Shown here piece after piece: positions 10,283-32,612 of a stretch of 43,437 nt of DNA (positions are counted from its first letter, which is position 1; the number at the start of each line of letters is the position of its first letter). Origin of the DNA: Deltaproteobacteria bacterium (lineage in GTDB: Bacteria > Desulfobacterota > Desulfomonilia > Desulfomonilales > Desulfomonilaceae). The notes below the pieces were generated by a model that ran no database searches, was not told the DNA's origin, and was given only the letters and a program-made list of their open reading frames with translations. The position numbers were made by a program, and so were the translations under genes. The stretch covers positions 1 to 43,437 of the forward strand of contig VGSG01000026.1 in NCBI GenBank assembly GCA_016875095.1, in the 5' to 3' direction.

Positions 10283-10425
10283 GATCTTATCTTTGTGGGC
10301 CCTGTTCGTTGCGTCTGTCGGGGATTCACAAAGGTTTGTTTTTTTTGGCCCATCGCTCTCGAGACCAAAGCCGACATTTCTCCGTGCCGCCGGACGGCGG
10401 CGTTCTACCCTGTGGGAGAACATTC

Positions 10426-11794: not shown

Positions 11795-11797
11795 GCC

Positions 11798-12997: not shown

Positions 12998-13011
12998 GGA
13001 ATGGGGGGATA

Positions 13012-13362: not shown

Positions 13363-13469
13363 TAATTGCGCGCGGAACCGTCTTTGTGGCTCGATCCGGG
13401 CCTGTAAGCACGGCAACGTGTCTTTCGCAAACTTTTGTTGCGGCTTGAGGAGGTGAGTAGCCACGAGAC

Positions 13470-13556
13470 ATGTGTTTCCCACGGAGGATCAGGGCGCCTG
13501 ACCTATCCGCGGGAGAAAAGCCAAATGAAAAGAGAGGGGCGCGCAGGTCGATCTGA
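13470..13556 (+). CDS. Possible 28-aa leader peptide before the PHP gene
   Basis: A short frame starts at ATG 13470 and ends in a TGA at 13554-13556, which overlaps the proposed CTG start (13553-13555) as CTGA, mimicking ATGA translational coupling. GAGGAGG lies around 13446-13452, rather far from the ATG (about 17 bp). The peptide is Arg-rich and unlike known proteins. It may be chance; it is listed because it would explain how ribosomes reach an unusual start. Confidence 0.2.
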   Translation: MCFPRRIRAPDLSAGEKPNEKRGARRSI

Positions 13557-14314: not shown

Positions 14315-14393
14315 AAAGGATGCGGATCCAAGATCCGCGCCGCCGCCGACCGGCGGGAATATTGGATGTTGACGGGCCGTTTGGCGGTCGGAG

Positions 14394-14939: not shown

Positions 14940-14982
14940 TCGTTATCACGAACAGAGATTCTCTTTACGGAGCGGAATCAAA

Positions 14983-15498: not shown

Positions 15499-15524
15499 GC
15501 AATGATGCGCCAGGAGGTGCGATC

Positions 15525-15911
15525 ATGGCCAAGATCAGCATACAGGATTTGAAAAAGATCAAAGAAGAGCAGAAGGCCAGGATGGTCCTTCGCGAAGGCG
15601 CCCAGCGCGCCAAGATCACGGTTCACATGGGAACGTGCGGCATCGCGGCCGGAGCGCGGGACATCATGGTGCTCTTCAGGGACATTATCGGTGAACGCGG
15701 CCTGGACGATATCATCCTGACCAACTCGGGGTGCGCAGGACTTTGCGCCCAAGAACCGATGATCACCGTGGAGGTCGCGGGCCAGTCCCCCATCAAGTAC
15801 GTGAAACTCGACTCGGCAAAGGCCCGACGCATTTTTGACGAACATGTGATGGCCGGGAACCCCGTGGAGGATTTCGCCCTTGCTCGGGGAAGCGAGACCA
15901 CGGCCCAGTAG
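15525..15911 (+). CDS. Thioredoxin-like [2Fe-2S] ferredoxin
   Basis: This 128-aa protein of the thioredoxin-like [2Fe-2S] ferredoxin family carries the motif HMGTCGIAAGARDIM and, about 40 residues later, SGCAGLCAQEP. Only three Cys fall in these motifs (the first segment has a single Cys), so the cluster may have a different fourth ligand or be altered. It is related to the N-terminal domain of the following NuoF. The start at 15525 is preceded by AGGAGGT 6 bp upstream; an in-frame ATG at 15495 overlaps the nuoE stop. Such a separate subunit is known beside hydABC-type gene sets but is not part of standard complex I. I infer an extra electron carrier docked on NuoF. Confidence 0.8.
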   Translation: MAKISIQDLKKIKEEQKARMVLREGAQRAKITVHMGTCGIAAGARDIMVLFRDIIGERGLDDIILTNSGCAGLCAQEPMITVEVAGQSPIKYVKLDSAKARRIFDEHVMAGNPVEDFALARGSETTAQ

Positions 15912-15973
15912 CGATAGGCGGAGAGACCCGATCCGCTCGCACGCTTCCGGAACAAGGCGGTGGAGAAATATAG

Positions 15974-17770
15974 ATGAGTGCCAGTCCCTATTATCGAATG
16001 CAGTTCTTGCTGTGCGCGGGAACAAGCTGCATTGCCAGCGGTTCGCTTGAAGTCAAGGATGCGCTCCAAAAGGAACTTCTCAAGAGAAACCTCCATGACG
16101 ATGTTCAAATCGTTATGACCGGATGCAACGGTTTTTGCGCCAGAGGTCCTCTGGTGGTGGTTTACCCGGACGGCGTCTTCTATAACCAGGTCAAGCCCGA
16201 GCACGCGCCGCTTATCGTGGAAGAGCACGTGCTCAAGGGTCGTGTCGTCCAGGATCTCCTGTTCAAAGAGCCCGCTGCGAAGGACAGAGTTCCGCTGATC
16301 AACGACATTGATTTCTTCGGTCGTCAGAGGCTGATCGCGCTGAGAAACCGGGGTTTGATCGATGCGGAAAGCATAGATGATTACATAGCGAGGGACGGAT
16401 ACGCCGCGTTGGCCAAGGCTCTTGAATCCATGACTCCTGAGGAGGTTATCGAAGAAGTCAAGAAGTCCGGTCTCAGGGGGCGTGGGGGAGGTGGATTCCC
16501 CACCGGCCTCAAATGGGAAGAGTGCCGGAAGTATGACAATTTCCCCAAGTACACCGTGTGTAACGGTGACGAAGGCGACCCGGGCGCGTTCATGGACCGT
16601 AGCGTTATGGAAGGTGACCCGCATTCGGTCCTGGAGGGGATGGCTGTCTCCGGATACGCGATCGGCGCCAATAAGGGATACATCTACGTGCGGGCGGAGT
16701 ATCCGCTGGCGATTCAGAGGCTTCAGAAGGCCATAGACGACGCGCGTGAGTACGGTCTTTTGGGGCCGAACGTCTTCAACAGCGGGTTTGACTTCGATAT
16801 CGAGATCTATCCCGGCGCGGGAGCGTTCGTCTGCGGGGAATCCACGGCGCTGATGTATTCCATCGAGGGCAAGCGCGGCATGCCCAGGATCAAGCCTCCC
16901 CGGAGCGCGGAAGCGGGGCTGTGGAACCAGCCCACCAATCTCAACAACGTGGAGACCTTCGCGAACGTCAATCCCATCATACTCAACGGCGGTGATTGGT
17001 TCGCGTCCATCGGCACCGAAGGGAGCAAAGGCACAAAGGTCTTTGCTTTGACCGGCGCGATCAACAACGTGGGTCTGGTGGAAGTGCCCATGGGCACCAC
17101 ACTCAAGACCCTGATCTTTGACATCGGCGGCGGCATTCCCAAGAAAAGGAAATTCAAGGCGGCTCAGATCGGCGGCCCCTCCGGCGGCTGTATTCCCAAC
17201 GGCCTTGAAGATGTGCAGATCGATTACGAGTCGCTGACCGACGTTGGCGCCATGATGGGGTCCGGCGGCGTTGTGGTTATGGACGATATGACCTGCATGG
17301 TGGACACCGCACGGTTCTTTACGCACTTCTCGGTGGAGGAATCATGCGGTAAGTGCGTGCCCTGCCGTGAAGGGCTCAAGGTGATGCACGAGAAACTCAC
17401 CGACATCGTGGAGGGCCGCGGGCAGGCGGGAGATATCGAGTTCCTGCAAGAGTTGGGCAAGCATATCGGCTCCACCTCTCACTGCGGACTGGGAAAGGCT
17501 GCCTCCAACCCGGTGCTCTCCACCATACGCTATTTCAAAGATGAGTACGAGGCGCACATCTTCGATAAGAGCTGTCCTGCGCTGGTATGCGTGGATCTGA
17601 TCAAGTTCGAGGTGATCGAAGAGAAATGCACGAAGTGCGGCATGTGCTTCCGAGGATGTCCGACCGGCGCCGTTATCTGGGAAAAGAAACAGGTGGCGAG
17701 GATCGACCTCTCCAAGTGCACAAAGTGCCGCACCTGCATTACGAACTGCAAGTTCGGCTCAATCAGATGA
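15974..17770 (+). CDS. nuoF: Complex I subunit F, long HydB-type flavoprotein
   Basis: NuoF binds FMN and NADH and starts electron transfer. This copy is 598 aa, well above the about 430-450 aa of standard NuoF, because of extra domains. An N-terminal thioredoxin-like [2Fe-2S] domain (Cys14, Cys19, Cys51, Cys55) is followed by the flavin/NADH core (GLRGRGGGGFPTGLKW, NGDEGDPGAFMDR, GAFVCGESTALMYSIEG), the N3 cluster (Cys458, 461, 464 and 504) and two C-terminal [4Fe-4S] ferredoxin motifs (Cys552/555/558/562 and 582/585/588/592). This is the architecture of HydB in electron-bifurcating hydrogenases and of related formate dehydrogenase subunits. Bifurcation is therefore possible but not proven by sequence. 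Confidence 0.95.
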   Translation: MSASPYYRMQFLLCAGTSCIASGSLEVKDALQKELLKRNLHDDVQIVMTGCNGFCARGPLVVVYPDGVFYNQVKPEHAPLIVEEHVLKGRVVQDLLFKEPAAKDRVPLINDIDFFGRQRLIALRNRGLIDAESIDDYIARDGYAALAKALESMTPEEVIEEVKKSGLRGRGGGGFPTGLKWEECRKYDNFPKYTVCNGDEGDPGAFMDRSVMEGDPHSVLEGMAVSGYAIGANKGYIYVRAEYPLAIQRLQKAIDDAREYGLLGPNVFNSGFDFDIEIYPGAGAFVCGESTALMYSIEGKRGMPRIKPPRSAEAGLWNQPTNLNNVETFANVNPIILNGGDWFASIGTEGSKGTKVFALTGAINNVGLVEVPMGTTLKTLIFDIGGGIPKKRKFKAAQIGGPSGGCIPNGLEDVQIDYESLTDVGAMMGSGGVVVMDDMTCMVDTARFFTHFSVEESCGKCVPCREGLKVMHEKLTDIVEGRGQAGDIEFLQELGKHIGSTSHCGLGKAASNPVLSTIRYFKDEYEAHIFDKSCPALVCVDLIKFEVIEEKCTKCGMCFRGCPTGAVIWEKKQVARIDLSKCTKCRTCITNCKFGSIR

Positions 17771-17859
17771 GAAGCTGACATGGAGCGCACGGCGCGATAA
17801 GTGGCGACCGGCGCTGATGGAATTGATTTTGAGACCATCCTGGCGGTGAGAAAGATTCT

Positions 17860-20499
17860 ATGGTTACGCTGACCATTGACGGAGTTGAAGTTACCGTAGA
17901 GCGTGGAGCCAGTATTCTGGAGGCTGCGCAAAAGGCGGGAGTTCGCATTCCGACCCTATGTCACGACAAGCGACTGGTTCCTTACGGCGCGTGTCGGTTG
18001 TGCATAGTGGAAGTCACCTCCAGAGGCCGAACGCGCACGATGCCGGCCTGCTTTAATCCCGCGCGTGAAGGCATGGAAGTGGCGACTCACACACCGAAGC
18101 TCGCTGAAAGCCGCCGAATGCAACTAATGTTGCTGTTGAGATCTCACCCGCTCCTCTGTCCCAGTTGCGATGCGGGTGGGAACTGTCGTTTGCAGGACCT
18201 GGTTCACGAGTACGAGGTGCCCGAACTCCCGTTCACTCGCGAGTCGCGGTACTACCATGTGGAAAATGAGTCCCATTTCATTCGTTTCAACATGAATCTG
18301 TGCGTCCGGTGCGGTATGTGCGTCCGCATCTGCGACGAAGTCCAGGGCGAGAACGAGCTGAGCTTCATCAAACGCGGCATGGAATGCGAAGTTTCCACGG
18401 ACTTCGGACGTCCGCTTCAATGCGAGCTGTGCGGTCAGTGCGCCCAGATTTGTCCGGTGGGCGCCATCGCTTCCAAATGGCTGGTGGGAACCGCCAGAGC
18501 GTTTGAGGTGAACAGGGTAAACACGGTTTGCTCTTTCTGCAGCCTTGGCTGTGTGCTGACCGTGGCGGAGCGTAAGAAGAAAATCGTCGCGGTGTCTTCT
18601 CCCGCGGATAGCCACAACGAAGGCAATCTGTGCGTCAAAGGGCGGTACGGATGGCCGTACGCCTATTCGGAGCAACGGCTGAAAAAGCCGCTTATCCGGA
18701 AGGATGGGAGCCTTCAGGAGGTGGAGTGGAACGAGGCGTTGAGCTTTGTAGCTGAACAGCTCATGGCCATCAAGGGTTCCAGCGGCCCGGGAAGCCTCGC
18801 TGCCCTGGGATCCGAACGACTCACGAATGAAGAGGCGTACGTTTTCAATCGCTTCGCCCGGACGGTGATGGAAACGCCGCACCTCGACCATGCCGGCGGA
18901 TACGGATACAGGGCTCTGGTGGACGGGCTTGGGTCGGCGCTTGGATTCCCTGCGTCAACGAACTCGATTACTGAGATACGGGAAGCCGATGTCATCCTTC
19001 TGTTGGCGGCGGATCTTACCGAAACCCACCCCGTGGCCAAGAACGAGGCCATCATGGCGACGAGCCGGCACAAGGGGGAGCTTATCGTCATAGACGCGGT
19101 GAAGACCAAGCTCACCGGGCGCCGAGGCACGCATCTCATGTGCAAGCCCGGGACCGAGCACTTCGTTGCCTTCGCAATGATCAAAGAGATCATCGACAAA
19201 GAGTTGTTCGATCGGAAGGCGTTGGATTTGCGGGCCGACGGCCTGGATGAGCTGGTCGCGTCCCTTGCGCCTTACGATCCGGACGCGGTGGGCGCTCTTA
19301 CCGGCGTTGACGCGGACACGATCCGCCAGGCCGCTGAGAAGTTCGCTCGGGCTTCCAGGGCTGCGATTCTGCTTACTGACGGCATGAATCGGCCTGCGCA
19401 GAATGTATTGCTGGCGCGAGCCGCCGCCAACCTCGCGGTGATAACAGGCCAAGTGGGCAAGGAATCAGGAGGAGTATTCGTCTTCGGGGAGAAGGCCAAC
19501 GCTCAAGGCGCGATCGACATGGGACTCGCGCCGGATCTCCTCCCCGGATTCCGGCGCCTGGCCGACGAAGAAGGCCGCGCCCGCTTCGAGAAGGCCTGGG
19601 GCGGCCCGCTTCCGCAGGAACCGGGCATGAACGCGGCTGGGATTCTGGAAGCCGCGGAGAAGGGCGCCGTTCGAGGCATCTACGTGGTTGGTGAGAATCC
19701 TCTGGAAACCTATCCGAACCGCGGCCAGGTGGAGCGGGCTCTGGGCAGTCTTCAATTCCTGGTGGCACAGGATCTGTTCCTGACATCGACCGCGCGGTTG
19801 GCTCATGCGGTCCTTCCCGTTGCATCCTTTATGGAGAAGAACGGAACAGTGACGAGCGCGGAACGGATGATCCAGCGCCTGAAGCCGGTATGGAAGTCGG
19901 TCGAACACAAGAGCGACCTGGAGATCTTTACCGCTTTGGCCGCAATGATGGGGAAGCCCGCGATGACGTACCCCGGACCGGAGCGGGTGATGGATGAGAT
20001 CGCTTCGCTGGTGGATGTGTACAAAGGTGTCTCATACGACCGCATCGGCGATCGGGGCATTCAGTGGCCTTGTGTGGACACCGACGATCCGGGCAAACGC
20101 AGGCTCTATGAAGGCGGCTTTCCGGCGGGGAAAGCGCGACTTCAACCTGCGCCGACCTTCCAGGCGTCCCCGAATCAGGGCGGTCCCTTCTATCTGACAC
20201 CGAGTAGCCTGAAATTTCATTCCGGCTCCATATCCCAATTCAGTTTCTCGCTCCTGGAGGTCGTGGCGGGAGCGGTCGCGGAGATGAATCGATCCGACAT
20301 GAAAGCCGTGGGGCTGGTCGATGGGGATAGGGTGCGGATAACCGATTCTTTCGGCGCGTCGATTGCCGTGCGTGCGAAGGGCTCTCGGCGGGCGCCTGCG
20401 GGCGTAGTGATCGTTCCGCAACACTTCTCTGAGGCGAAGCTGAACACGTTGACCCGGTGGGATGACCCCGCTCCGAGGGTAAGAGTCGAAAAGGTCTAG
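17860..20499 (+). CDS. nuoG: Complex I subunit G, FdhA-like without catalytic Cys
   Basis: The large 879-aa peripheral subunit carries an N-terminal [2Fe-2S] domain (Cys34, 45, 48, 64), a His-ligated cluster (His96, Cys100, 103, 109), two [4Fe-4S] clusters (Cys148/151/154/158 and 188/191/194/198) and a further cluster at the start of the molybdopterin-type domain (Cys224, 227, 231, 258). The rest is a molybdopterin-oxidoreductase fold. Where formate dehydrogenases have the Cys/Sec loop, this protein reads LDHAGGYGYRALVDGLGSAL, with no Cys and no in-frame TGA, so it should not be a formate dehydrogenase. It passes electrons from NuoEF toward NuoI. An 89-bp gap separates it from nuoF. Confidence 0.93.
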   Translation: MVTLTIDGVEVTVERGASILEAAQKAGVRIPTLCHDKRLVPYGACRLCIVEVTSRGRTRTMPACFNPAREGMEVATHTPKLAESRRMQLMLLLRSHPLLCPSCDAGGNCRLQDLVHEYEVPELPFTRESRYYHVENESHFIRFNMNLCVRCGMCVRICDEVQGENELSFIKRGMECEVSTDFGRPLQCELCGQCAQICPVGAIASKWLVGTARAFEVNRVNTVCSFCSLGCVLTVAERKKKIVAVSSPADSHNEGNLCVKGRYGWPYAYSEQRLKKPLIRKDGSLQEVEWNEALSFVAEQLMAIKGSSGPGSLAALGSERLTNEEAYVFNRFARTVMETPHLDHAGGYGYRALVDGLGSALGFPASTNSITEIREADVILLLAADLTETHPVAKNEAIMATSRHKGELIVIDAVKTKLTGRRGTHLMCKPGTEHFVAFAMIKEIIDKELFDRKALDLRADGLDELVASLAPYDPDAVGALTGVDADTIRQAAEKFARASRAAILLTDGMNRPAQNVLLARAAANLAVITGQVGKESGGVFVFGEKANAQGAIDMGLAPDLLPGFRRLADEEGRARFEKAWGGPLPQEPGMNAAGILEAAEKGAVRGIYVVGENPLETYPNRGQVERALGSLQFLVAQDLFLTSTARLAHAVLPVASFMEKNGTVTSAERMIQRLKPVWKSVEHKSDLEIFTALAAMMGKPAMTYPGPERVMDEIASLVDVYKGVSYDRIGDRGIQWPCVDTDDPGKRRLYEGGFPAGKARLQPAPTFQASPNQGGPFYLTPSSLKFHSGSISQFSFSLLEVVAGAVAEMNRSDMKAVGLVDGDRVRITDSFGASIAVRAKGSRRAPAGVVIVPQHFSEAKLNTLTRWDDPAPRVRVEKV

Positions 20500-20520
20500 G
20501 AATGACGAAAGGTTGAGCGA

Positions 20521-21564
20521 ATGGATGCCGCCATTCCGATGATTTTGGTTGTGGTCAAAGTTCTCCTGGTGCTGGGCGCGGTCCTGACCCTTGTGGCGTA
20601 CATCACGCTGCTGGAGCGCAAGCTTCTGGGGTGGATACAGGTGCGCCTCGGACCCAATCGGGTTGGGCCGTGGGGTCTGCTCCAGCCGCTCGCGGACGGA
20701 ATCAAGCTCCTCACGAAAGAGGAGATCACCGTGACCAAGGCAAATCGGGTCGTGTACATTCTCGCGCCGATGATCGTTGTGGTTTGTGCGTTGATTCCTT
20801 TTGGAGTGATCCCCTTTGCCAAGGGCCTGGGGCTGGAGCGGCTTCTCGGGGGAGCGGCGGAGCGCTTCGATCTCAATACCGGTGTGATCGCGGACATCAA
20901 CGTGGGTATTCTCTTCATCTTCGCGATATCTTCGTTAGGCGCGTACGGCGTGATCCTGGGCGGCTGGGCGTCCAACAGCAAGTATTCGCTCCTCGGGGGC
21001 ATTCGCACAGGCGCGCAGATGATCAGCTATGAATTGGGCCTGAGCCTCGCGGTGGTGGGCGTGCTTATGATCGCGGGCACCCTGAGCCTTGTTGAGATAG
21101 TAGGGGAGCAGAGCAGCGTTTTGAGGTGGTTCGTGTTTCGGCAGCCGGTGGGATTTCTCCTCTTCCTCATCGCCGGAGCCGCGGAAATTTGCCGGACACC
21201 CTTTGACGTGATCGAATGCGAAAACGAGCTGGTGGCGGGCTATCAGACCGAATATAGCTCCATGAAGTTCGGTCTCTTCTACCTGGGTGAATACGCCCAC
21301 CTGCTCTTCCTAAGCGCGCTGATCACCACACTCTTCTTCGGGGGATGGCAGGGCCCGATTTTCCCCCCCATCGTTTGGTTCATGGGCAAGACCTTCTTTT
21401 TCGTATTCTTCTTCATATGGGTCCGGGCAACCTATCCCCGTCTGCGCTATGACCGGGTGATGGCTTTTGGCTGGAAGGTGCTCCTGCCCGTGGGGCTGAT
21501 CAACGTGATGATGACTGCCTTCATCTATACGGTCTGGCTCCAGTTTACGGGACGGGGATTGTAG
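20521..21564 (+). CDS. nuoH: Complex I subunit H
   Basis: NuoH (347 aa) links the membrane arm to the quinone cavity. It has about eight membrane segments and the family signatures ERKLLGWIQVRLGPNRVGPWGLLQPLADGIKL near the N-terminus (split here by a membrane segment boundary) and RTPFDVIECENELVAGYQTEYSSMKF in the middle, with the acidic loop lining the quinone channel. A purine-rich AAAGG lies about 10 bp upstream of the ATG. It follows nuoG by 21 bp in the same operon. Confidence 0.96.
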   Translation: MDAAIPMILVVVKVLLVLGAVLTLVAYITLLERKLLGWIQVRLGPNRVGPWGLLQPLADGIKLLTKEEITVTKANRVVYILAPMIVVVCALIPFGVIPFAKGLGLERLLGGAAERFDLNTGVIADINVGILFIFAISSLGAYGVILGGWASNSKYSLLGGIRTGAQMISYELGLSLAVVGVLMIAGTLSLVEIVGEQSSVLRWFVFRQPVGFLLFLIAGAAEICRTPFDVIECENELVAGYQTEYSSMKFGLFYLGEYAHLLFLSALITTLFFGGWQGPIFPPIVWFMGKTFFFVFFFIWVRATYPRLRYDRVMAFGWKVLLPVGLINVMMTAFIYTVWLQFTGRGL

Positions 21565-21640
21565 CTCACGGACGGGCGACCGACAATCGGCGACCGATGT
21601 GACGCATTCAATTTTCAACGATCATGTGAGGTTGCGGCAG

Positions 21641-22078
21641 ATGATCATCCCATTGCTACAGGGACTGAAAGTTACCTTAAAGTATTTGTTCGCGAAGAAG
21701 GTAACGCTCCAGTATCCGGATGAGAAACCCCAGTTGGCGCGGCGGTGGCGGGGTAGGCACGTCTTGAAGACGCACGCCTCGGGCAAGATCAAGTGCGTGG
21801 CGTGCATGTTGTGCGCGACTGCGTGCCCTGCGGAATGCATCAGCATCGTGGCGGCCGCGGAGCCGGACAACCGCAAGTACCCTGAGAGCTACGTGTTAGA
21901 CATGGGAAGATGCATCTGGTGCGGCCATTGCGTGGAGGTGTGCCCGAAAGAGGCCATTGAAATGGCCACGGCCTATGAGCTGGCCGAATATACTCGTGAA
22001 GATCTTATCTACGATAAGGAGGCCCTCCTGCAGTCTCCGCAAGAGCGGTACGTCGTCGAAAAGAGAAAGGCCGGTTAA
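21641..22078 (+). CDS. nuoI: Complex I subunit I, 2x[4Fe-4S]
   Basis: NuoI carries clusters N6a and N6b between NuoG and NuoB. The 145-aa protein shows two ferredoxin motifs, CVACMLCATACP and CIWCGHCVEVCP, each giving four Cys ligands, after an N-terminal helical stretch (LLQGLKVTLKYLF). I chose the ATG at 21641, which has GAGG 9 bp upstream; the frame extends to a GTG at 21599. It lies between nuoH and nuoJ as in standard operons. Confidence 0.94.
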   Translation: MIIPLLQGLKVTLKYLFAKKVTLQYPDEKPQLARRWRGRHVLKTHASGKIKCVACMLCATACPAECISIVAAAEPDNRKYPESYVLDMGRCIWCGHCVEVCPKEAIEMATAYELAEYTREDLIYDKEALLQSPQERYVVEKRKAG

Positions 22079-22111
22079 CGCCACTTACTCTGGGAGGTCG
22101 GGGGAATACTC

Positions 22112-22612
22112 ATGGAACTTGTCTACTTTTACATTCTCTCGTTCATTGTGGTCGTTTCGGCCGTCTTCGTTGTCTTTCTGCGCAGGCCGCTGCACAATGT
22201 GCTCTTCATGATACTCACCATGATCGGTGTGGCCTGTTTGATGCTTCAACTCGAGGCGGAATTCATCGCCATGGTTCAACTGATCGTCTATGCGGGCGCG
22301 GTCATGGTCTTGTTCCTCTTTGTGGTGATGCTGGTAAACATCACCCAGGCCGACCTGCTCAGTCAGTTGTCCGCTGTGCGAGGTTGGGCCGGGGCGCTGG
22401 TCGCGTTTGCGATTTTTGGTGTCATCTTGACCGTATTCAAAGTGGGTGGCCAAACTGCGGCCCCCCAAGCGCAAGCGGCTCAGCATCTTACAAACACGGA
22501 ACTGGTTGCGCGAGAGCTCTTCACCACGTATCTGCTCCCGTTCGAGGTTGCGTCGGTGCTGCTTCTTGCGGCCATTATCGGCGCGGTTATCCTCGTCCGG
22601 AAGGGCCGGTGA
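22112..22612 (+). CDS. nuoJ: Complex I subunit J
   Basis: NuoJ (166 aa) is a five-helix membrane subunit next to NuoK. The characteristic third helix reads FIAMVQLIVYAGAVMVLFLFVVMLVN, containing the pi-bulge region, and the last helix ends LLLAAIIGAVILVRKG. A GGGGGAA element precedes the ATG. It is followed by nuoK after 58 bp. Confidence 0.94.
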   Translation: MELVYFYILSFIVVVSAVFVVFLRRPLHNVLFMILTMIGVACLMLQLEAEFIAMVQLIVYAGAVMVLFLFVVMLVNITQADLLSQLSAVRGWAGALVAFAIFGVILTVFKVGGQTAAPQAQAAQHLTNTELVARELFTTYLLPFEVASVLLLAAIIGAVILVRKGR

Positions 22613-22670
22613 GGCGGTCCTCGCGATCGACCTCTCCGGCGCCGGGCGGCTGTTTTTGTAGGAAAGAGAA

Positions 22671-22973
22671 ATGCTTACCTTAGATCACTATCTGGTGTTG
22701 TCCGCGATCCTCTTCTTTCTCGGGGCAGTGGGGGTGATGGTCCGTGCGCAGATCATCGTGGTGCTCATGTGCCTCGAACTGATGCTGAATGCGGTAAATC
22801 TGGCCTTCGTGGCCTTCGCCCGTCATCTGGGTTCCGTGGAAGGGCAGGTGATCGTGCTGTTCGTTATGGTGGTGGCAGCCGCAGAAGTGGCTGTGGGCCT
22901 GGCCATCGCTGTGGCCATATTCAGGCAGAAGGGCGCCGTGGGCATCGACGATCTTCGGGTCATGAAGTGGTAG
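22671..22973 (+). CDS. nuoK: Complex I subunit K
   Basis: NuoK (100 aa, the usual size) has three membrane helices and is related to MrpC antiporter subunits. Two buried Glu of the proton path are visible: CLELMLNAVNLAFVAF and AAAEVAVGLAIAVAIFR. AGGAAAGAG lies directly upstream of the ATG. The next gene, nuoL, follows after 74 bp. Confidence 0.95.
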   Translation: MLTLDHYLVLSAILFFLGAVGVMVRAQIIVVLMCLELMLNAVNLAFVAFARHLGSVEGQVIVLFVMVVAAAEVAVGLAIAVAIFRQKGAVGIDDLRVMKW

Positions 22974-23047
22974 GTTACGAACGCCATTCGGGCACGCGTA
23001 TGAGCCCAAGTGGCATCACTCGTCTAAACTGAGATTGGGAGCCTGGG

Positions 23048-24970
23048 ATGTTTGATCTGGTCTGGTTGATTCCTCTCTTTCCGCTGATCGGCTTCTTCTT
23101 GAACGCCGTATTCGGCAGGGAGTGGCCCGAGAAGGTCAATGGATGGGTGGGCTCGCTCTCCGTGGGCGCCTCCTTCGTGGTGGCGTGCTTGATCCTCAAA
23201 GAGCTTCTGGCGGTCGATCCGGCCTCCCGATCCGTGGAAAAGGTCGTGTACACGTGGATGGTTTCAGGGAACCTGAATGTCCCCGTGGGCTTCCTCATGG
23301 ATCCGCTCGGCATGGTTATGATGATGGTGGTGAGCGGGGTCGGCTTTATCATCCATGTCTATTCAATCGGATACATGCACGGTGAGGTGGGTTACCGGCG
23401 ATATTTCTGCTACTTGAACCTCTTCGTCTTCTCCATGCTTATCCTGGTCTCGGCCAACAATTTCCTGTTGATGTTCGTGGGATGGGAAGGAGTGGGCCTC
23501 TGCTCTTACCTGCTCATCGGCTACTACTATGAAAAGAAATCCGCTGCGGACGCGGGCAAGAAAGCCTTCGTGGTCAACCGGGTCGGCGACTTCGGGTTCA
23601 TGCTCGGCATGTTTCTGCTCTTCGTGACTTTCGGAACGTTCAACTATACCGAGATCTTTGCCGCAGCGCCCAAGCAGCTCGTTCAGGGCGGAATCCTGGT
23701 CACGGGCATCACTCTGCTCCTCTTCGTGGGAGCAACGGGGAAGTCGGCTCAAATACCGCTCTACACGTGGCTTCCGGACGCGATGGAAGGCCCTACCCCT
23801 GTGAGCGCCCTCATTCACGCGGCCACGATGGTCACCGCGGGCGTGTACATGGTCGCGCGGTGCAGCATACTCTTCGCGATGGCGCCGATCTCGCTGTACA
23901 CCGTTGCGGTGATCGGCGGCGCCACTGCGCTCTATGCGGCCACAATCGGCGTGACCCAGTTCGACATCAAGCGAGTGCTCGCATACTCCACCATCAGCCA
24001 GCTCGGGTACATGTTCATGGCCTGCGGCGTGGGCGCATTCGCTTCGGGCATCTTCCACCTGATGACGCACGCGTTTTTCAAGGCGCTCTTGTTCATGGCC
24101 GCGGGGAGCGTGATGCACGCCATGGCCGGCGAGCTGGATATGCGCAAGATGGGTGGCTTGAGAAGACAGCTCCCCTGGACTCACTGGACCTATATTTTCG
24201 GCACACTGGCCATTGCCGGGATCTTTCCCTTTGCCGGTTTCTTCAGCAAGGATGAGATTCTCTTTTACGCCTTTGAGAAACACCTTGGTTTCTGGATTTG
24301 GGGGGCGGTGGCGGCGATTGTCACGTCGTTCTATATGTTCCGCAGTGTCTTCATGACCTTCTGGGGCGAATCGAGGGTAGACGCGCACACGGCCCACCAC
24401 CTGCACGAATCGCCACCGATCATGGTGGCTCCGCTGGTGGTGTTAGCAGTCCTTTCGCTTGTAGGCGGACTGGTCGGTATCCCGATCATCCCGCACTGGC
24501 ACGTGTTCGGCGACTTCCTAGCTCCGGTCTTTGCTCCGGCCAAATCCATTATCGATGCGGGCGCCCACGGCGGACACCACAGTCTGGCGCTGGAATTGGG
24601 CCTTATGGGCATCTCTCTGGGAATTGCGGTGGTGGGCTTCTTCCTGGCCCGTTGGATGTACATCACCAATCCGTCGGCCCCGGACGAGGTGATCAAAGAA
24701 TTCAAGGGCCTGCACACGCTTGTATACAACAAGTACTGGATAGATGAACTCTACGATTTTCTCTTCGTGAATTCAATCGTCCGTTTTTCCCGGTTCCTCT
24801 GGAAGTACTTCGATGACGCGGTCATTGACGGGATCGTCAACGGTTTGGCTGCGCTTGTCAGAGAGTGGGGCAGCGGGTTACGCCGATTTCAAACAGGTCT
24901 GATACGCGACTATGCGTTGTCGGTGCTTCTGGGCGTGCTCGCGGTCATCGGTTACCTGGTATTTCGATAA
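23048..24970 (+). CDS. nuoL: Complex I subunit L (antiporter-like)
   Basis: NuoL (640 aa) is the distal antiporter-like proton-pumping subunit. The conserved core includes FVGWEGVGLCSYLLIGYYY with the key Glu, the TM7 Lys region GKSAQIPLYTWLPDAMEGPTPVSALIHAATMV, and TISQLGYMFMACGVG. The C-terminal extension beyond about residue 500 forms the lateral helix that clamps NuoM and NuoN, and it ends in a final membrane anchor (ALSVLLGVLAVIGYLVF). GGGAG precedes the ATG. Its TAA overlaps a possible ATG for nuoM. Confidence 0.96.
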   Translation: MFDLVWLIPLFPLIGFFLNAVFGREWPEKVNGWVGSLSVGASFVVACLILKELLAVDPASRSVEKVVYTWMVSGNLNVPVGFLMDPLGMVMMMVVSGVGFIIHVYSIGYMHGEVGYRRYFCYLNLFVFSMLILVSANNFLLMFVGWEGVGLCSYLLIGYYYEKKSAADAGKKAFVVNRVGDFGFMLGMFLLFVTFGTFNYTEIFAAAPKQLVQGGILVTGITLLLFVGATGKSAQIPLYTWLPDAMEGPTPVSALIHAATMVTAGVYMVARCSILFAMAPISLYTVAVIGGATALYAATIGVTQFDIKRVLAYSTISQLGYMFMACGVGAFASGIFHLMTHAFFKALLFMAAGSVMHAMAGELDMRKMGGLRRQLPWTHWTYIFGTLAIAGIFPFAGFFSKDEILFYAFEKHLGFWIWGAVAAIVTSFYMFRSVFMTFWGESRVDAHTAHHLHESPPIMVAPLVVLAVLSLVGGLVGIPIIPHWHVFGDFLAPVFAPAKSIIDAGAHGGHHSLALELGLMGISLGIAVVGFFLARWMYITNPSAPDEVIKEFKGLHTLVYNKYWIDELYDFLFVNSIVRFSRFLWKYFDDAVIDGIVNGLAALVREWGSGLRRFQTGLIRDYALSVLLGVLAVIGYLVFR

Positions 24971-24990
24971 TGCATGGAGGAATGCCTTCC

Positions 24991-26580
24991 ATGGATCTTG
25001 CATCCTTGCCGTTGCTGAGTCTTGTGGTCTTCATTCCCCTCGTGGCCGCGGTGATCCTGCTATTTGTCGGCAGGGCGTATGAAACGCTCATGCGCACGAT
25101 CGCGCTCGTATCTATGCTCTTGGATTTGGCCGCGTCGGCCGCAGCGTACTATTTCTTTGACGCGAGCTCGGCAGCCATGCAACTGACCGAGTATCACGTC
25201 TGGGTGCCGACGTGGGGAATTTCGTACAAGCTCGGCATAGATGGAATCAGCCTTTTTCTTGTGCTGCTCACCGGGCTCCTGGGACCGATCGTGATTTTGG
25301 CCTCGTGGGAAGACATCAAGTATAGGGTCAAAGAGTTCCTTATCTCCCTGCTGGCGCTGCAAACCGGCATGATGGGAGTCTTCGTCTCGCTGGACCTCTT
25401 CTTGTTCTACGTCTTTTGGGAAGTAATGCTCATTCCCATGTACCTGCTCATCGGAGTCTGGGGGAACCCGGCCCGGAAGCTCTACGCCGCGATAAAGTTC
25501 GTGCTCTACACCGTCGTGGGCAGCCTGCTGATGCTGGTCGCCATTTTGGCGCTCTATCTTATGGCCGGCAGCGCATCGGGAGAGTACACCTTCGATCTGC
25601 TGAAGCTCTACGACTTCCCGGTTCCCATTTACGCCCAGTTGTGGATGTTCCTCGCGTTCTTCCTCGCGTTTGCCATCAAAGTGCCCATGTTTCCGTTCCA
25701 CACATGGCTTCCGGACGCGCACACCGAGGCGCCGACCGTGGGCAGCGTGGTTCTTGCCGCGGTTCTGCTCAAGATGGGGACGTACGGCTTCATCCGCTTC
25801 GCCATACCGCTCTTCCCCAACGCGGCCATTGATTCGACCTGGTGGATCATGGTGTTGGCCCTGATCGGCATCATCTACGGAGCGTGGGTTGCGATGGTGC
25901 AGGTGGACGTGAAGAGGCTGGTGGCCTTTTCCAGTGTAAGCCATCTGGGATTCGTAATGCTGGGAATGTTCGCGTTCAATGTGCGCGGGGTGGAAGGGAG
26001 CATCCTGCAGATGATCAACCACGGGTTGAGCACCGGGGCTCTATTCCTCATTGTGGGGATCATCTACGAACGGCGACACACGAGGCTCATCGAGGATTAC
26101 GGCGGTATTTCAAAGGTCATGCCGATCTTTGCGGTCTTCTTCATGATCTTTACCCTCTCGTCCATCGGTTTGCCGGGGCTCAACGGGTTCGTGGGCGAAT
26201 TCCTGATCCTGCTGGGCACCTTTGAGGTGTATCCCTGGTTTGCCGTTCTGGCCGCGACGGGTGTGATATTCGCCGCGGTGTACATGCTGTGGATGTTCCA
26301 GAGGGTCATGTTCGGCGAACTCACCAATCCTAAGAATGTGGGCCTCAAAGACCTGAGCTATCGGGAGATCGTCGTGCTCGCGCCGCTGGTGGTATTTGTG
26401 GTCTGGATCGGTGTATACCCGGACACTTTCTTGAAGCCGATGGAGCCGTCAGTTAAACAGTTCTTGAAACAGGTGGAAGTGAAGAAGGCCGCGGTCCTCG
26501 ATCAGGAGAACGGGAAAAAGCTTTCCGCACTGGATCTGGCGGCGCAATCCCATTCTCGGAGAGCGGTGAATGATCGCTGA
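24991..26580 (+). CDS. nuoM: Complex I subunit M (antiporter-like)
   Basis: NuoM (529 aa) is the second antiporter-like pump subunit. Landmarks are FYVFWEVMLIPMYLLIGVWG with the conserved Glu, KVPMFPFHTWLPDAHTEAPT with the TM7 Lys, and FSSVSHLGFVMLG. I chose ATG 24991 because GGAGGA (24976-24981) is spaced 9 bp from it; ATGs at 24970 (overlapping the nuoL stop) and 24982 (abutting GGAGGA) are alternatives. The C-terminal tail after the last helix is hydrophilic and Lys-rich, longer than usual. Confidence 0.95.
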   Translation: MDLASLPLLSLVVFIPLVAAVILLFVGRAYETLMRTIALVSMLLDLAASAAAYYFFDASSAAMQLTEYHVWVPTWGISYKLGIDGISLFLVLLTGLLGPIVILASWEDIKYRVKEFLISLLALQTGMMGVFVSLDLFLFYVFWEVMLIPMYLLIGVWGNPARKLYAAIKFVLYTVVGSLLMLVAILALYLMAGSASGEYTFDLLKLYDFPVPIYAQLWMFLAFFLAFAIKVPMFPFHTWLPDAHTEAPTVGSVVLAAVLLKMGTYGFIRFAIPLFPNAAIDSTWWIMVLALIGIIYGAWVAMVQVDVKRLVAFSSVSHLGFVMLGMFAFNVRGVEGSILQMINHGLSTGALFLIVGIIYERRHTRLIEDYGGISKVMPIFAVFFMIFTLSSIGLPGLNGFVGEFLILLGTFEVYPWFAVLAATGVIFAAVYMLWMFQRVMFGELTNPKNVGLKDLSYREIVVLAPLVVFVVWIGVYPDTFLKPMEPSVKQFLKQVEVKKAAVLDQENGKKLSALDLAAQSHSRRAVNDR

Positions 26581-26604
26581 TCGATGCAATCAGGAGCATA
26601 GGGG

Positions 26605-28050
26605 ATGATTTCGTTACCCGAACTAACCTTTGTCGGTATTCTTCCCGCGTTGCTATTGTGCGCTGCGGGCGTGGTTATCCTTGTGGTAGGTTGGTTTTTG
26701 CGCCGTGGCGTATTGGTGGTGTCCTGCGCAGTGGGCATTGTGGGAATAGCCGCCGCGCTGATCGCAAATAATCCTTTGCGCTTCGCGAACGACAGCGCGT
26801 TCTCCAACATGTTGGCGGTAGATGCTTACTCCTGGTTCCTGAACATCGTAATCCTGATCGCGGCCGGCCTGACCATTCTTATGTCTGTGCGGTACCTGGA
26901 GGATGAAGGAATCGCGATGTACGAGTACTTCGTGCTCGTGCTCTTTGCCGCCGCAGGCATGATGTTCATGGTGGGCGGCGATCATATCCTGATGATTTAC
27001 ATCGGCTTGGAAACCCTCTCCATCTCCATCTACATCTTAGCCGGCGGACTGCCGGAGAGCGTCAAATCCAAAGAAGCCGCGATGAAGTATCTGATATTGG
27101 GCGGCTTTGCGAGCGGGATGTTCTTGTACGGAGCGGCTCTTCTCTTTGGCGCCGCGGGAACGCTGTCACTGACCGGACTCGCGAAGCACTTCCAGGCCGG
27201 TCAAGTGGGCCTGCTGGCAAAGGCCGGCATGGGGCTGATACTGGTCGGCTTCTGCTTCAAGGTATCCGCGGTCCCGTTCCACATGTGGACGCCTGACGTG
27301 TACGACGGCGCGCCCACGCCGCTGACGGCGTTCATGTCAGTGGGTGTGAAAGCCGCGGCGTTTGCTGCGTTCGTGCGGGTCTTCTTCGAAGCTTTGACCC
27401 AGTTCCAAGTCGACTGGACGCAGATCCTGTGGGCGCTGGCCGTGTTGACCATGATCCTGGGCAATGTGGCTGCGGTCGTCCAGGAGAACATCAAACGAAT
27501 GCTTGCATACTCCAGTATCGCGCACGCGGGTTACATTCTCATCGGGATGATCGCCGGGGGAAAGGCGGGTATATCGGGCGTCCTCTATTACTTGCTCGCG
27601 TACACCTTCACCAACCTGGGAGCTTTTGGAATCGTGGCTCTGGTGGGAAGGAAGGGCGAAGCGCGGATCATGCTGAAGGATTACAGGGGACTGGGCAATT
27701 CCAACCCGCTGCTCGCGGTAGCCATGTCCATCTTCATGTTTTCATTAGCAGGAATACCACCCACCGCAGGGTTCATAGGCAAGTTCACCATATTCAGCGC
27801 TGCGTTGGCTCAAGGTTATATCTGGCTTGTTATTATTGCCGTGCTCACCAGCATTGTGTCGGTTTTCTACTATTTCCGGGTCATCATGAAGATGTACATG
27901 GAAACCCCTGAAACTCAGCCGGCCGCGCTCCAGCTCTCCCCCGCCACCGCGGCGGCTCTGATTATTTCCACCGCCGGCGTGCTCTATATCGGAATTTTCC
28001 CCACGACCTATTTGGGGCTCGCGCTGGAGTCGGTCAAACCGCTCTTCTGA
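26605..28050 (+). CDS. nuoN: Complex I subunit N (antiporter-like)
   Basis: NuoN (481 aa) is the third antiporter-like subunit and the last gene of the complex I set. The signature segments are YIGLETLSISIYILAG with the Glu, FKVSAVPFHMWTPDVYDGAPTPLTAFMSVGVKAAAF with the TM7 Lys, and AYSSIAHAGYILIGM. AGGAG lies about 11 bp upstream of the ATG. purQ begins 25 bp after its stop and is probably cotranscribed. Confidence 0.95.
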   Translation: MISLPELTFVGILPALLLCAAGVVILVVGWFLRRGVLVVSCAVGIVGIAAALIANNPLRFANDSAFSNMLAVDAYSWFLNIVILIAAGLTILMSVRYLEDEGIAMYEYFVLVLFAAAGMMFMVGGDHILMIYIGLETLSISIYILAGGLPESVKSKEAAMKYLILGGFASGMFLYGAALLFGAAGTLSLTGLAKHFQAGQVGLLAKAGMGLILVGFCFKVSAVPFHMWTPDVYDGAPTPLTAFMSVGVKAAAFAAFVRVFFEALTQFQVDWTQILWALAVLTMILGNVAAVVQENIKRMLAYSSIAHAGYILIGMIAGGKAGISGVLYYLLAYTFTNLGAFGIVALVGRKGEARIMLKDYRGLGNSNPLLAVAMSIFMFSLAGIPPTAGFIGKFTIFSAALAQGYIWLVIIAVLTSIVSVFYYFRVIMKMYMETPETQPAALQLSPATAAALIISTAGVLYIGIFPTTYLGLALESVKPLF

Positions 28051-29130: not shown

Positions 29131-30894
29131 ATGGCTCTGGATCCTACCAAGATGGCTGACTGGCAGGTGGCCGAAGCAGCCGAAGAGACCATGAAGACCG
29201 TTTATCAGCTCCGGGATGAGCTGGGGCTGAAGGAAGAAGAGCTTCTTCCGCACGGTCATTATGTGGCGAAGGTGGACTTCCGAAAGGTGCTCAAGCGAGT
29301 CAAAGACAGACCGGACGGCAAGTACATCGACGTGACCGCGATCACCCCTACGCCGCTTGGTGAAGGAAAATCCACCTGCTCCATGGGTCTGGTGGAAGGT
29401 CTGGGCAAGCGCAAGAAGAGCGTTGTGGCGGCCATCCGGCAGCCTTCCGGTGGTCCGACCATGAACATCAAAGGGTCCGCGGCAGGCGGCGGTCTGGCTC
29501 AGTGCATACCGCTCACGCCTTTTTCGCTGGGTCTCACAGGTGACATCAATGCGATCATGAACGCCCACAACCTCGCCATGGTTGCCGTCACGTCAAGAAT
29601 TCAGCATGAATTCAACTACGACGACGCGGAATGGGCCAAACGGGGCCAGCCCCGGCTGAACATCGATCCTCGAAGAGTGGAATTCGGCTGGATCATTGAC
29701 TTCTGCGCACAGGCCCTGCGGAACATCATGATCGGTATCGGCGGGAAGATGGACGGCTTTACGATGCAGTCCAAGTTCGGGATTGCGGTGTCGTCCGAGC
29801 TCATGGCCATTCTGGCGGTCGCGACAGACCTGAAAGACATGCGTGAACGGATGGGCCGCATCGTGGTGGCTACCAGTAAGGACGGCAAGCCGGTCACCAC
29901 CCGAGATCTCGAGGTGGACGGCGCGATGACCGCATGGATGGTGGAAGCCCTGAACCCCAACCTGTTGCAGAGCATAGAAGGGCAGCCGGTATTCGTACAC
30001 GCGGGTCCGTTCGCCAATATCGCAATCGGCCAGTCCTCCATCATTGCTGACCGGGTAGGTCTCAAGCTCGGTGATTATCATGTGACGGAATCAGGATTCG
30101 GGGCCGACATCGGATTCGAAAAGTTCTGGAACCTGAAGTGCCGCTTCTCCGGGCTCAAGCCGCACTGCGCGGTTGTGGTGGCCACCATCAGAGCGCTCAA
30201 GTGTCATGGCGGCGCGCCTGTTCCCAGGCCGGGCCTGCCCATGCCCAAGGAATATTCCGAGGAGAACGTGGGATGGGTCGAGAAGGGCTGCGAGAACCTG
30301 GTCCATCACATCAATACGGTCAAGAAAGCCGGCATCAATCCGGTGGTGTGTATCAACGCGTTCTACACGGATACGAAGAACGAAATCGCGGCGGTCAAGC
30401 GTATCGCGGAAGCTGCCGGTGCTCGTGCGCCGGTTTCCGAGCACTGGCTCAAGGGCGGAGACGGAGCCCTGGAGTTTGCCGACGCGGTCGTTGATGCATG
30501 CGAAGAGCCCAATGAATTCAGGCTCCTCTATGAACTCAGCCTTCCGCTGAGCAAGAGGATTGAAGTGATCGCGAAAGAGGTGTACGGCGCGGACGGCGTC
30601 AGCTATTCTGCCGAAGCTCAGGAGAAGCTCAAGCTGATGGAGGCCGATCCCGACACCGCCAAGCTGGGCACCTGCATGGTGAAGACGCATCTCAGCCTCT
30701 CCCATGACCCCAACATCAAGGGCGTTCCGAAAGGTTGGGTGCTGCCGGTGCGAGACATCCTTACGTATAAGGGCGCGGGCTTCGTGGTGCCGGTGGCCGG
30801 CGCCATCTCGTTGATGCCTGGAACAAGCTCCAACCCTGCCTTCCGTCGCATTGACGTGGATGTGGAGACAGGAAAGGTCAAGGGCGTCTTCTAG
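29131..30894 (+). CDS. fhs: Formate-tetrahydrofolate ligase
   Basis: This ligase converts formate, tetrahydrofolate and ATP to 10-formyl-THF, the entry to the methyl branch of the Wood-Ljungdahl pathway. The 587-aa protein has the P-loop [11 protein letters not shown] at about residues 73-83 and the family stretches [36 protein letters not shown] and [20 protein letters not shown], ending [19 protein letters not shown]. It is slightly longer than the usual about 557 aa. AGGAGGT lies 5 bp upstream of the ATG, and with the near-consensus promoter it suggests high expression. In syntrophs and sulfate reducers the enzyme may run in either direction. It is a single-gene transcript closed by the terminator at 30976. 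Confidence 0.96.
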
Positions 30895-31350
30895 TTTCTT
30901 GAAGAGCCCTCGTGATCCCTCTTGGCAAAGGAGGGTTGTGAAGGCTGCTTCAGACTGTATCCAATGCTGGAACGAAAAGATCCCGCGAGACACGCGCGCC
31001 TCGCGGGATCTTTCTTTGTTGGGGAAAAGCAGAGCCCGGAACAACTTCCTCCCGCGAGTTCCGCTCATCCCGATGTACTGCCTCCGGGACCCCATCGCAC
31101 AATCCCGGAGGAGCGAGCCCCCTTGCGCACCAGGGGGAGGAGCTCAAGGGCTCTTCCAAACAATAAGCATTGTGCGGGAGGGGTCAAGGGCCGAAAAGCG
31201 CACGCAGAACGACGCGTAGCGCTCGTTCGCTGTTGCCCGCTTGAAAACGAGACAGGACACGCTCATTCCAAAGATCGTCGATCAGGTACCGTAATGATAT
31301 AATTAAACAATTGTCATACGTTTCATCAACTGACCAAGGGGGGTCCGACA
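30895..31350. other. Intergenic region after fhs
   Basis: No gene was found. The region holds the fhs terminator (30976-31020), a few GC-rich inverted pieces, and an AT-rich pocket just before the Cys-rich gene. That pocket contains a perfect TATAAT (31298-31303), but no good -35 box was seen at 16-18 bp. Confidence 0.5.
30976..31020 (+). terminator. Rho-independent terminator after fhs
   Basis: AAAGATCCCGCGAG (30976-30989) and its exact reverse complement CTCGCGGGATCTTT (31000-31013) form a 14-bp stem with a 10-nt loop, followed by a T-rich tail (CTTTGTT). Confidence 0.8.
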
Positions 31351-31632
31351 ATGCGTCTATCAACCGTGCTGGTGGTGGTGTGCATCGCGTTGCTCGCCGC
31401 GATGCTTGACCCATGTGACTGTGTCGGGTGGCAGTGCCCGATTGATCGTTCTCCCCGGCAGGCGCCTGTGAAAAGCCTGAGCGCTTCCTGCGTGGAACAG
31501 TGTAACAAAGCCGGGTACGCCTGCCGCGAGAGCTGTCATGCAAGATTTCACCAGGGCTCCCAGCCTTGGTACAGTTGCATGTGGAAGTGCTCACAGGACG
31601 TCGCGGAGTGCAAGGCCGGATGTTACCCATAA
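31351..31632 (+). CDS. Secreted Cys-rich miniprotein with CX3C repeats
   Basis: The 93-aa protein has a signal peptide (MRLSTVLVVVCIALLAAM). The mature part holds eleven Cys: 22, 24, 29, then 47, 51, 58, 62 and 76, 80, 87, 91. The last eight make two copies of CX3C-X6-CX3C separated by 13 residues, an exact tandem spacing. The middle pairs (58/62 and 76/80) also fit the CX3C-X10-15-CX3C pattern of alpha-hairpinins. I infer a disulfide-stapled helical miniprotein exported to the periplasm or outside; the function is unknown. A strong ribosome binding site, AAGGGGGG, is 7 bp from the ATG. It stands alone, convergent with coaX. I recognise no family, and the regular Cys spacing argues it is a real gene. 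Confidence 0.75.
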   Translation: MRLSTVLVVVCIALLAAMLDPCDCVGWQCPIDRSPRQAPVKSLSASCVEQCNKAGYACRESCHARFHQGSQPWYSCMWKCSQDVAECKAGCYP

Positions 31633-31809: not shown

Positions 31810-32589
31810 TCAAGCGCCCTTTGGCGGGCTGTTTCTTGCGTAAAGGATACGCAGGCCCTCCATAGTCAGATCATCTTCGATATCGTCCACCAGCTTAGTG
31901 TGCGCGGAGATCACTCGCGCAAGGCCGCCTGTGGCGATGACACGCGGCCGCGAGTCAAGCTCCTCGAACATGCGCATGAGAATGCCGTCTACGAGGGACG
32001 CATAACCGTACACGATTCCCGATTGAATCGCGGAGGCCGTGTCTTTTGCTATGACCCGCGCAGGCGCGGTCAACTCGACGCGAAAAAGTTTGGAAGCCTG
32101 ATGGAAGAGGGCTTCCGCGGAGATCTTCACACCCGGCGCGATGCAGCCTCCCTCGTACTCACCCGCTTGATTGATGTAGTCAAAGGTCGTGGCCGTGCCG
32201 AAGTCCACTGCAATAAGCGCTATGCGGTATTTCTCATAGGCCGCGACCGCGTTGACGATCCTGTCCGCGCCCACCTCCCGGGGATTATCGTATCTGATCG
32301 GCATACCTGTCTTGATACCCGGACCGACAAAGAGCGGTGTAAGTTTCAGATGTCTCCTGCACAGCGCTTCAAGCGCTCCCATCAACGGCGGAACAACGCA
32401 TGAGATAATGACGCCGTCGATATCGAGAACGTTGAGATTCCCGGCCCGAGCCAGATTCAGCAACGCAACCAAGTACTCGTCCGCGGTCGCGTCCTCCACC
32501 GTGCGGATGCGCCAACTGCCTATTCGCCGATCACCGTCGAAAATCCCGATGACGGTATTGGTGTTCCCCACGTCTATCGCCAGGAGCAT
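31810..32589 (-). CDS. coaX: Type III pantothenate kinase
   Basis: This 259-aa CoaX phosphorylates pantothenate in the first step of CoA synthesis. It is an ASKHA-fold kinase with phosphate motifs DVGNTNTVIGIF (Asp6), the substrate motif GADRIVNAVAAY, and VDFGTATTFDYI with the catalytic Asp. The later GGCIAPGVKISAEAL and IATGGLARVI also match the family. The start at 32589 has GGAGGA 7 bp upstream; an ATG at 32604 overlaps that site and is disfavoured. It has its own promoter (32613-32641) and faces the HDAC gene divergently. Confidence 0.93.
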   Translation of the reverse strand: MLLAIDVGNTNTVIGIFDGDRRIGSWRIRTVEDATADEYLVALLNLARAGNLNVLDIDGVIISCVVPPLMGALEALCRRHLKLTPLFVGPGIKTGMPIRYDNPREVGADRIVNAVAAYEKYRIALIAVDFGTATTFDYINQAGEYEGGCIAPGVKISAEALFHQASKLFRVELTAPARVIAKDTASAIQSGIVYGYASLVDGILMRMFEELDSRPRVIATGGLARVISAHTKLVDDIEDDLTMEGLRILYARNSPPKGA

Positions 32590-32612
32590 CGAATTATCCT
32601 CCATTGCGAGCG

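What the first reader, a model, noticed from the sequence alone, without database searches (positions are those of the whole stretch)
31351..31632. Secreted miniprotein with a tandem CX3C-X6-CX3C repeat
The spacing of the last eight Cys is exactly duplicated, and the central pairs match the alpha-hairpinin pattern CX3C-X13-CX3C. Three more Cys precede them. A signal peptide and strong ribosome binding site support expression. I know no named bacterial family with this layout; it could be a metal-binding, inhibitory or structural disulfide protein.
Basis: partly seen in the sequence, partly recalled or inferred. Interest (0 to 1): 0.65.

Follow-up and report, generated by a model that had tools for sequence, protein, structure and literature searches.

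The report
Bacterial disulfide-laddered helical hairpin miniprotein
The window encodes a small exported bacterial protein that very probably folds into two helices riveted together by four disulfide bonds, a design known mainly from worm venoms and plant seeds; similar modules recur in scattered related bacteria, and their job is unknown.

Summary
ORF 31351-31632 encodes 93 aa whose last eight Cys are spaced CX3C-X6-CX3C-X13-CX3C-X6-CX3C; 0 of 400,000 shuffles gave this. No sequence homologue was found for this protein in 42 genomes of its class or 395 of its phylum, and none lies downstream of coaX in the relatives examined. The layout itself recurs: the same genome has a second copy, about a dozen other sampled genomes of the phylum have small exported proteins or lipoproteins with it, and so do some Myxococcota. 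An off-face spacing control gave no small exported ORF, against nine (one of them low-complexity). The pattern is better read as mirror-symmetric than as a tandem repeat. AlphaFold2 predicts two antiparallel helices (pLDDT 95) with all Cys pairs in register, and PilY1 inserts in related genomes carry a perfect 12-Cys palindrome. A profile of the layout finds ribbon-worm neurotoxin B-IV and plant alpha-hairpinins in the PDB. No Pfam or NCBIfam family covers it. Best reading: an exported, disulfide-stapled alpha-hairpin used as a rigid binding or inhibitory module at the cell envelope. Fold likely; function inferred; common descent unproven, so convergence is possible.

The parts
31351..31632 (+). 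ORF of the 93-aa Cys-rich exported protein, stop codon included
   Evidence: profile of the layout matches at E 4.7e-10 (the window sequence is one of its 19 rows)
31336..31343 (+). Shine-Dalgarno-like AAGGGGGG, 7 nt before the start codon
   Evidence: sequence
31351..31407 (+). hydrophobic N-terminal export signal (about residues 1-19); cleavage site uncertain, may stay as an anchor
   Evidence: Kyte-Doolittle maximum 3.38; helix 3-18 in the full-length model
31414..31437 (+). N-terminal Cys cluster C22, C24, C29; absent in most other small proteins with this layout; low model confidence
31483..31545 (+). helix 1 (residues 45-65) with C47, C51, C58, C62 on one face
   Evidence: AlphaFold2 domain model, pLDDT 94.9
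31546..31560 (+). interhelical turn (residues 66-70); length of the inter-helix Cys loop varies 5-14 across the sampled small proteins and domains
31561..31623 (+). helix 2 (residues 71-91) with C76, C80, C87, C91 on one face
30979..31015 (+). terminator-like hairpin after the upstream formate-tetrahydrofolate ligase gene, suggesting a separate transcription unit
   Evidence: fold z-score -3.9; the consensus scan did not list it

Best explanation
The gene makes a small exported protein. In the oxidising cell envelope its eight C-terminal Cys form four disulfides (predicted C47-C91, C51-C87, C58-C80, C62-C76) that rivet two antiparallel alpha-helices into one rigid hairpin, an alpha-hairpinin core with two further rungs. 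The hairpin most likely acts as a stable, protease-resistant display scaffold whose variable outer faces and loop bind or inhibit another protein at the cell surface or in the periplasm. Shown: ORF, spacing, recurrence, hydrophobic N-terminus, a VKOR-family gene in the genome. Predicted: hairpin fold. Inferred: disulfide pairing and binding function (my confidence about 0.85 for the fold, 0.4 for binding or inhibition).
For: AlphaFold2 domain model from a 3-row alignment: pLDDT 94.9, helices 2-22 and 28-48; the full-length single-sequence model agrees. Cys at i, i+4, i+11, i+15 lie within 60 degrees of one helix face. Spacing absent from 400,000 shuffles. Same layout in small exported proteins: G156, G311, G135 (three), G001, G077, G041, G161, G018, G201, G324 and own contig C43. 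About 0.07 chance DNA matches expected in the 395 genomes by a simple base-composition model; an off-face X4 control with the same filter gave 3 ORFs and 0 small exported, against 20 and 9 (one of the 9 low-complexity). PilY1 inserts L236 and L237 have 12 Cys as a perfect 6-pair palindrome (0 of 2000 shuffles), which a tandem model explains less well (PilY1 by Pfam). Profile search of PDB sequences: neurotoxin B-IV E 0.0013, then vicilin leader peptides, kappa-KTx, luffin P1, EcAMP1. The model aligns to B-IV over 46 residues, rmsd 2.0. VKOR in the genome. Domain charge runs from -6 to +8 and loops differ, so the scaffold rather than a fixed active residue is what is shared.
Against: No disulfide, expression or activity was measured. 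The set was chosen by Cys spacing, so its invariant Cys are partly circular. Outside the Cys columns the window protein does not fit the other proteins better than its own shuffles (p 0.27), so common descent is not shown. Foldseek E-values to B-IV and hairpinins are insignificant (7.4) and two-helix hairpins are common shapes (Z 5.0). No conserved partner gene was found.
Confidence: 0.6

Rival explanations
1. Two tandem short alpha-hairpinin modules: each CX3C-X6-CX3C folds on itself around its six-residue loop, as predicted for the commonest plant 4C motif.
For: CX3C-X6-CX3C is the most prevalent 4C motif among predicted plant alpha-hairpinins (PMC11591084), and modular plant precursors exist.
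Against: AlphaFold2 keeps one helix through each X6 at about 95 pLDDT; longer PilY1 variants are mirror images, not tandem; the X6 stretches lack loop-like residues in most rows of A1; solved hairpinins named in the review have loops of 12-13 (positions).
Confidence: 0.1
2. A secreted inhibitor or toxin-like peptide (protease inhibitor, antibacterial or antieukaryotic), as alpha-hairpinins and B-IV are.
For: Profile relatives in the PDB are inhibitors, antimicrobial peptides and channel toxins; the fold is stable and displays a loop; Arg in the loop is reminiscent of the Arg of hairpinin trypsin inhibitors.
Against: No immunity gene, dedicated exporter or conserved partner found; several members are predicted lipoproteins that stay with the cell; charge and loop are not conserved; the domain also sits inside PilY1.
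Confidence: 0.2
3. A thiol metal-binding or storage protein (Csp or vanabin style) in which the Cys stay reduced or the surface binds metal.
For: CX3C-rich helices resemble the copper storage protein plan (my recollection); vanabin 2 and a designed heavy-metal-binding peptide appear among structural neighbours (Z 4.0 and 5.4); longer 28-36-Cys proteins exist in the phylum.
Against: Exported to an oxidising compartment; Cys pair in exact antiparallel register; no match to any Pfam metal family; no conserved His or Met pattern or metal-handling neighbours seen.
Confidence: 0.12
4. A radical-SAM-modified peptide (RiPP) akin to NCBIfam TIGR04117, with Cys used for thioethers.
For: Two proteins with this layout touch TIGR04117 weakly (E 0.007, far below cut-off); the own-genome second copy lies after a radical SAM/SPASM and a flavoprotein gene in one apparent operon.
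Against: Orthologues of that radical SAM gene in related genomes lack such a peptide beside them; the window gene has no radical SAM neighbour; export signals point to envelope disulfides.
Confidence: 0.05
5. Not a gene: a chance ORF in the intergenic region between the formate-tetrahydrofolate ligase and coaX genes.
For: Weak codon bias, no sequence-level orthologue, none found downstream of coaX in relatives.
Against: Shuffle test 0 of 400,000; ribosome binding site, hydrophobic start and helix-face Cys layout together; same layout in other exported proteins with a clean control.
Confidence: 0.05

Closest known systems
Neurotoxin B-IV of the ribbon worm Cerebratulus lacteus (PDB 1vib; Pfam PF07822 Toxin_13)
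   Same: Eight Cys in nearly the same spacing on two antiparallel helices, four disulfides, about 50 residues; best PDB profile hit (E 0.0013); 46 residues at 2.0 A
   Different: First helix of B-IV has CX2C where this has CX3C, and its inter-Cys loop is 10; animal venom peptide; the window protein has no Toxin_13 match
Plant alpha-hairpinins (EcAMP1, VhTI, luffin P1, vicilin-buried peptides)
   Same: CX3C-Xn-CX3C helix-loop-helix, Cys1-Cys4 and Cys2-Cys3 pairing (PMC7191063); the inner four Cys fit
   Different: Two disulfides instead of four; plants; the published criteria exclude three or more extra Cys outside the core (PMC11591084)
Mitochondrial twin-CX3C small Tim proteins
   Same: Helical hairpin with CX3C on each helix in an oxidising compartment (recalled; a TIM22 complex chain is listed at Z 3.4)
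   Different: Two disulfides, hexameric chaperones, eukaryotic
NCBIfam TIGR04117 Syntroph_Cxxx (Cxxx-repeat radical SAM target)
   Same: Cys-rich small peptides; weak match to two proteins with this layout
   Different: No match for the window protein; scores far below cut-off; no conserved radical SAM neighbour

Membership tests
alpha-hairpinin | 4C core CX3C-X4-20-CX3C | tested here: met
   C58, C62, X13, C76, C80
alpha-hairpinin | No three or more Cys outside the 4C/6C core (published exclusion rule) | tested here: not met
   C22, C24, C29, C47, C51, C87, C91 lie outside the core
alpha-hairpinin | Two antiparallel helices joined by a loop | tested here: met
   Predicted only: AlphaFold2 helices 2-22 and 28-48, pLDDT 94.9
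alpha-hairpinin | Antimicrobial, inhibitor or ribosome-inactivating activity | not testable with these tools
   Needs an assay
Toxin_13 / neurotoxin B-IV (PF07822) | Pfam gathering score 21 bits | tested here: not met
   No Pfam match for the window protein at E 10; one other protein with this layout reaches 10.9 bits
Toxin_13 / neurotoxin B-IV (PF07822) | Helical hairpin with four disulfides | tested here: inconclusive
   Hairpin predicted; pairing inferred from register; disulfides not measured
TIGR04117 Syntroph_Cxxx | Curated cut-off 50 bits | tested here: not met
   No match for the window protein; 16.4 bits for two other proteins with this layout
TIGR04117 Syntroph_Cxxx | Radical SAM maturase next door | tested here: not met
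   None near the window gene; the link at the own-genome second copy is not conserved
Metal-storage families in Pfam (Csp/DUF326, vanabin) | Pfam match | tested here: not met
   No Pfam family for the window protein at E 10; none of these among ten other members

The most novel reading that the evidence does not exclude
Bacteria of the Desulfobacterota (inferred) and Myxococcota use an unrecognised exported module, a disulfide-laddered alpha-hairpin extendable from four to six rungs, as free miniproteins, lipoproteins and inserts in pilus-tip PilY1 adhesins: a bacterial counterpart, ancestral or convergent, of eukaryotic venom and seed helical hairpins.
Probability: 0.55. Interest if true: 0.65.

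Novelty: new variant of a known kind. Interest (0 to 1): 0.5.

Why it matters
Multi-rung disulfide-stapled helical hairpins are described in worm, scorpion, mosquito and plant proteins; I found no Pfam or NCBIfam model and no paper in the open library searched that describes them in bacteria. If real, they are hyperstable bacterial scaffolds of about 45 residues that could serve as binders, and their presence inside PilY1 would point to a role in adhesion. They also offer a clean test of convergence, since spacing is kept while the rest of the sequence is not.

Tried and rejected
BLAST-type searches with the window protein in class and phylum gave only noise; plasmids none. GTDB contigs by protein: none. 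Viral contigs with a 10-residue loop: overwhelmingly low-complexity or with stops; one Cys-rich non-repeat ORF, L345. PHROGs gave a weak anti-CRISPR hit (E 0.24), discarded. PDB single-sequence hits to coronavirus nsp14 (E 0.02) discarded as Cys-driven. Radical SAM maturation rejected because the link is not conserved. A possible third partial repeat (C22, C29 at period 29) judged chance. Fold search of the full model gave only generic two-helix matches, among them the sea-anemone acrorhagin I.

Full report
Check of the observation. The ORF 31351-31632 is present and reads MRLSTVLVVVCIALLAAMLDPCDCVGWQCPIDRSPRQAPVKSLSASCVEQCNKAGYACRESCHARFHQGSQPWYSCMWKCSQDVAECKAGCYP. The last eight of its twelve Cys are CX3C-X6-CX3C-X13-CX3C-X6-CX3C. 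In 400,000 shuffles of residues 19-93 no sequence gave this layout. The start codon follows AAGGGGGG by 7 nt. The N-terminus is strongly hydrophobic but has no clear cleavage site or lipobox. The gene lies alone between the formate-tetrahydrofolate ligase gene (29131-30894, after which a stable hairpin folds at z -3.9) and the convergent coaX gene (31810-32604); these gene names are from my reading of the sequences. Codon statistics are only weakly supportive.

Relatives of this very protein. No Pfam, NCBIfam or convincing PHROGs match. It is alone at the sequence level in its genome, class (42 genomes) and phylum sample (395). None of 14 related coaX loci has a Cys-rich counterpart downstream. 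So the protein has no detectable orthologue.

The layout recurs. Searching the phylum sample for the eight-Cys spacing with a loop of any length from 5 to 15 residues, then translating, found small exported proteins or lipoproteins in G156, G311, G135 (three), G001, G077, G041, G161, G018, G201 and G324, and a second copy in the same genome on contig C43. All 16 stand-alone proteins examined start with a hydrophobic stretch and several carry a lipobox. A profile of 19 such domains (A1) found matches in 15 of 395 genomes of the phylum at E 1e-4, including one not in the pattern list (L256), and in 10 of 235 genomes drawn from the phylum of L095, which its record title names Myxococcota. Within the class it is sporadic: the window genome, plus inserts in PilY1-like proteins of G386 and G403. 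A control with spacing that puts the Cys on opposite helix faces (X4 instead of X6), run on the same genomes with the same filter, gave 3 ORFs and no small exported protein, against 20 and 9, one of the nine being low-complexity. A simple base-composition estimate for chance DNA matches is 0.07.

Shape. AlphaFold2 on residues 44-93 with three aligned rows gives helices 45-65 and 71-91 at mean pLDDT 94.9; the full-length single-sequence model agrees and leaves residues 19-42 disordered. Positions 0, 4, 11 and 15 of a helix fall within 60 degrees. The pairs 47-91, 51-87, 58-80 and 62-76 all sum to 138, as an antiparallel ladder requires. CX3C-X6-CX3C is palindromic, so tandem and mirror readings cannot be told apart in this protein alone. 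Longer relatives can tell them apart: the PilY1 inserts L236 and L237 have 12 Cys with gaps 4,4,4,7,4 outward-in on both sides, a perfect six-pair palindrome that no shuffle reached, while the best tandem reading pairs four; L263 and L264 have five-pair palindromes. L239, L240 and L241 are less regular.

Comparison with known proteins, made afterwards. The profile's best solved relative is neurotoxin B-IV of a ribbon worm (E 0.0013), followed by vicilin leader peptides, kappa-KTx, luffin P1 and EcAMP1 at weak E-values. The structural second look lists luffin P1, vicilin peptides, B-IV (46 residues, 2.0 A, Z 5.0) and vanabin 2 among many generic helical pairs, which is suggestive only. B-IV is described as a well-defined helical hairpin with four disulfides (PMC6410017); hairpinins pair Cys1-Cys4 and Cys2-Cys3 (PMC7191063). 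By the published exclusion rule for alpha-hairpinins (PMC11591084) this protein is not one, and it fails the Toxin_13 and TIGR04117 profiles. It works like them in outline without being a demonstrated member. Literature searches for the motif and for such hairpins in bacteria returned nothing relevant in the library held; subscription journals are mostly absent from it.

Function. The genome has a VKOR-family gene, so envelope disulfide formation is plausible. Surface charge, loop length and loop sequence vary widely while spacing does not, and the same domain occurs free, as lipoprotein, as C-terminal domain (L144, L265, L267) and as an insert in PilY1. The economical reading is a rigid binding or display module at the envelope; inhibitor or toxin-like use is the main rival. 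A radical SAM link at the second copy is not conserved in orthologous loci.

Limits. The set was collected by Cys spacing, so Cys invariance is partly built in; outside the Cys columns the window row does not beat its own shuffles (p 0.27), although a few subfamilies clearly do. Common descent is therefore open. The host class is inferred as Desulfomonilia of the Desulfobacterota from one relative with a 6.5-Mb genome in two contigs that resembles Desulfomonile tiedjei; this rests on memory and was not tested.

Noticed in passing
L236, L237, L239, L240, L241 (genomes G386 and G403): PilY1-like proteins with PF05567 (tested in L236 and L237) carry a 12-Cys insert; in L236 and L237 it is a perfect palindrome, predicting a six-rung disulfide ladder inside a pilus-tip adhesin.
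   Followed up: partly
L402:5179-8297 (own genome, contig C43): Second copy of the eight-Cys layout at the end of an apparent operon with a radical SAM/SPASM protein, a flavodoxin-like NADPH-FMN reductase and an unannotated 275-aa protein; a related 343-aa protein lies divergently upstream.
   Followed up: partly
L176, L178, L179, L180, L218: Exported proteins of roughly 200-280 aa with 28-36 Cys built of many CX3C-X6-CX3C-like units, similar to each other across genomes; no family searched.
   Followed up: no
L209:660-3401: Three adjacent paralogous exported proteins with an N-terminal carboxypeptidase-regulatory-like region (by eye) and a C-terminal CX3C-X6-CX3C array.
   Followed up: no
L208 and L256 (genome G324): Two paralogous His- and Arg-rich exported versions (domain charge +3 and +8, 4-5 His), possible metal or nucleic-acid binders.
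   Followed up: no
window 10309-28050: A complete-looking respiratory complex I operon with NADH-binding subunits, followed by a PurQ-like gene and formate-tetrahydrofolate ligase; ordinary (by eye).
   Followed up: no
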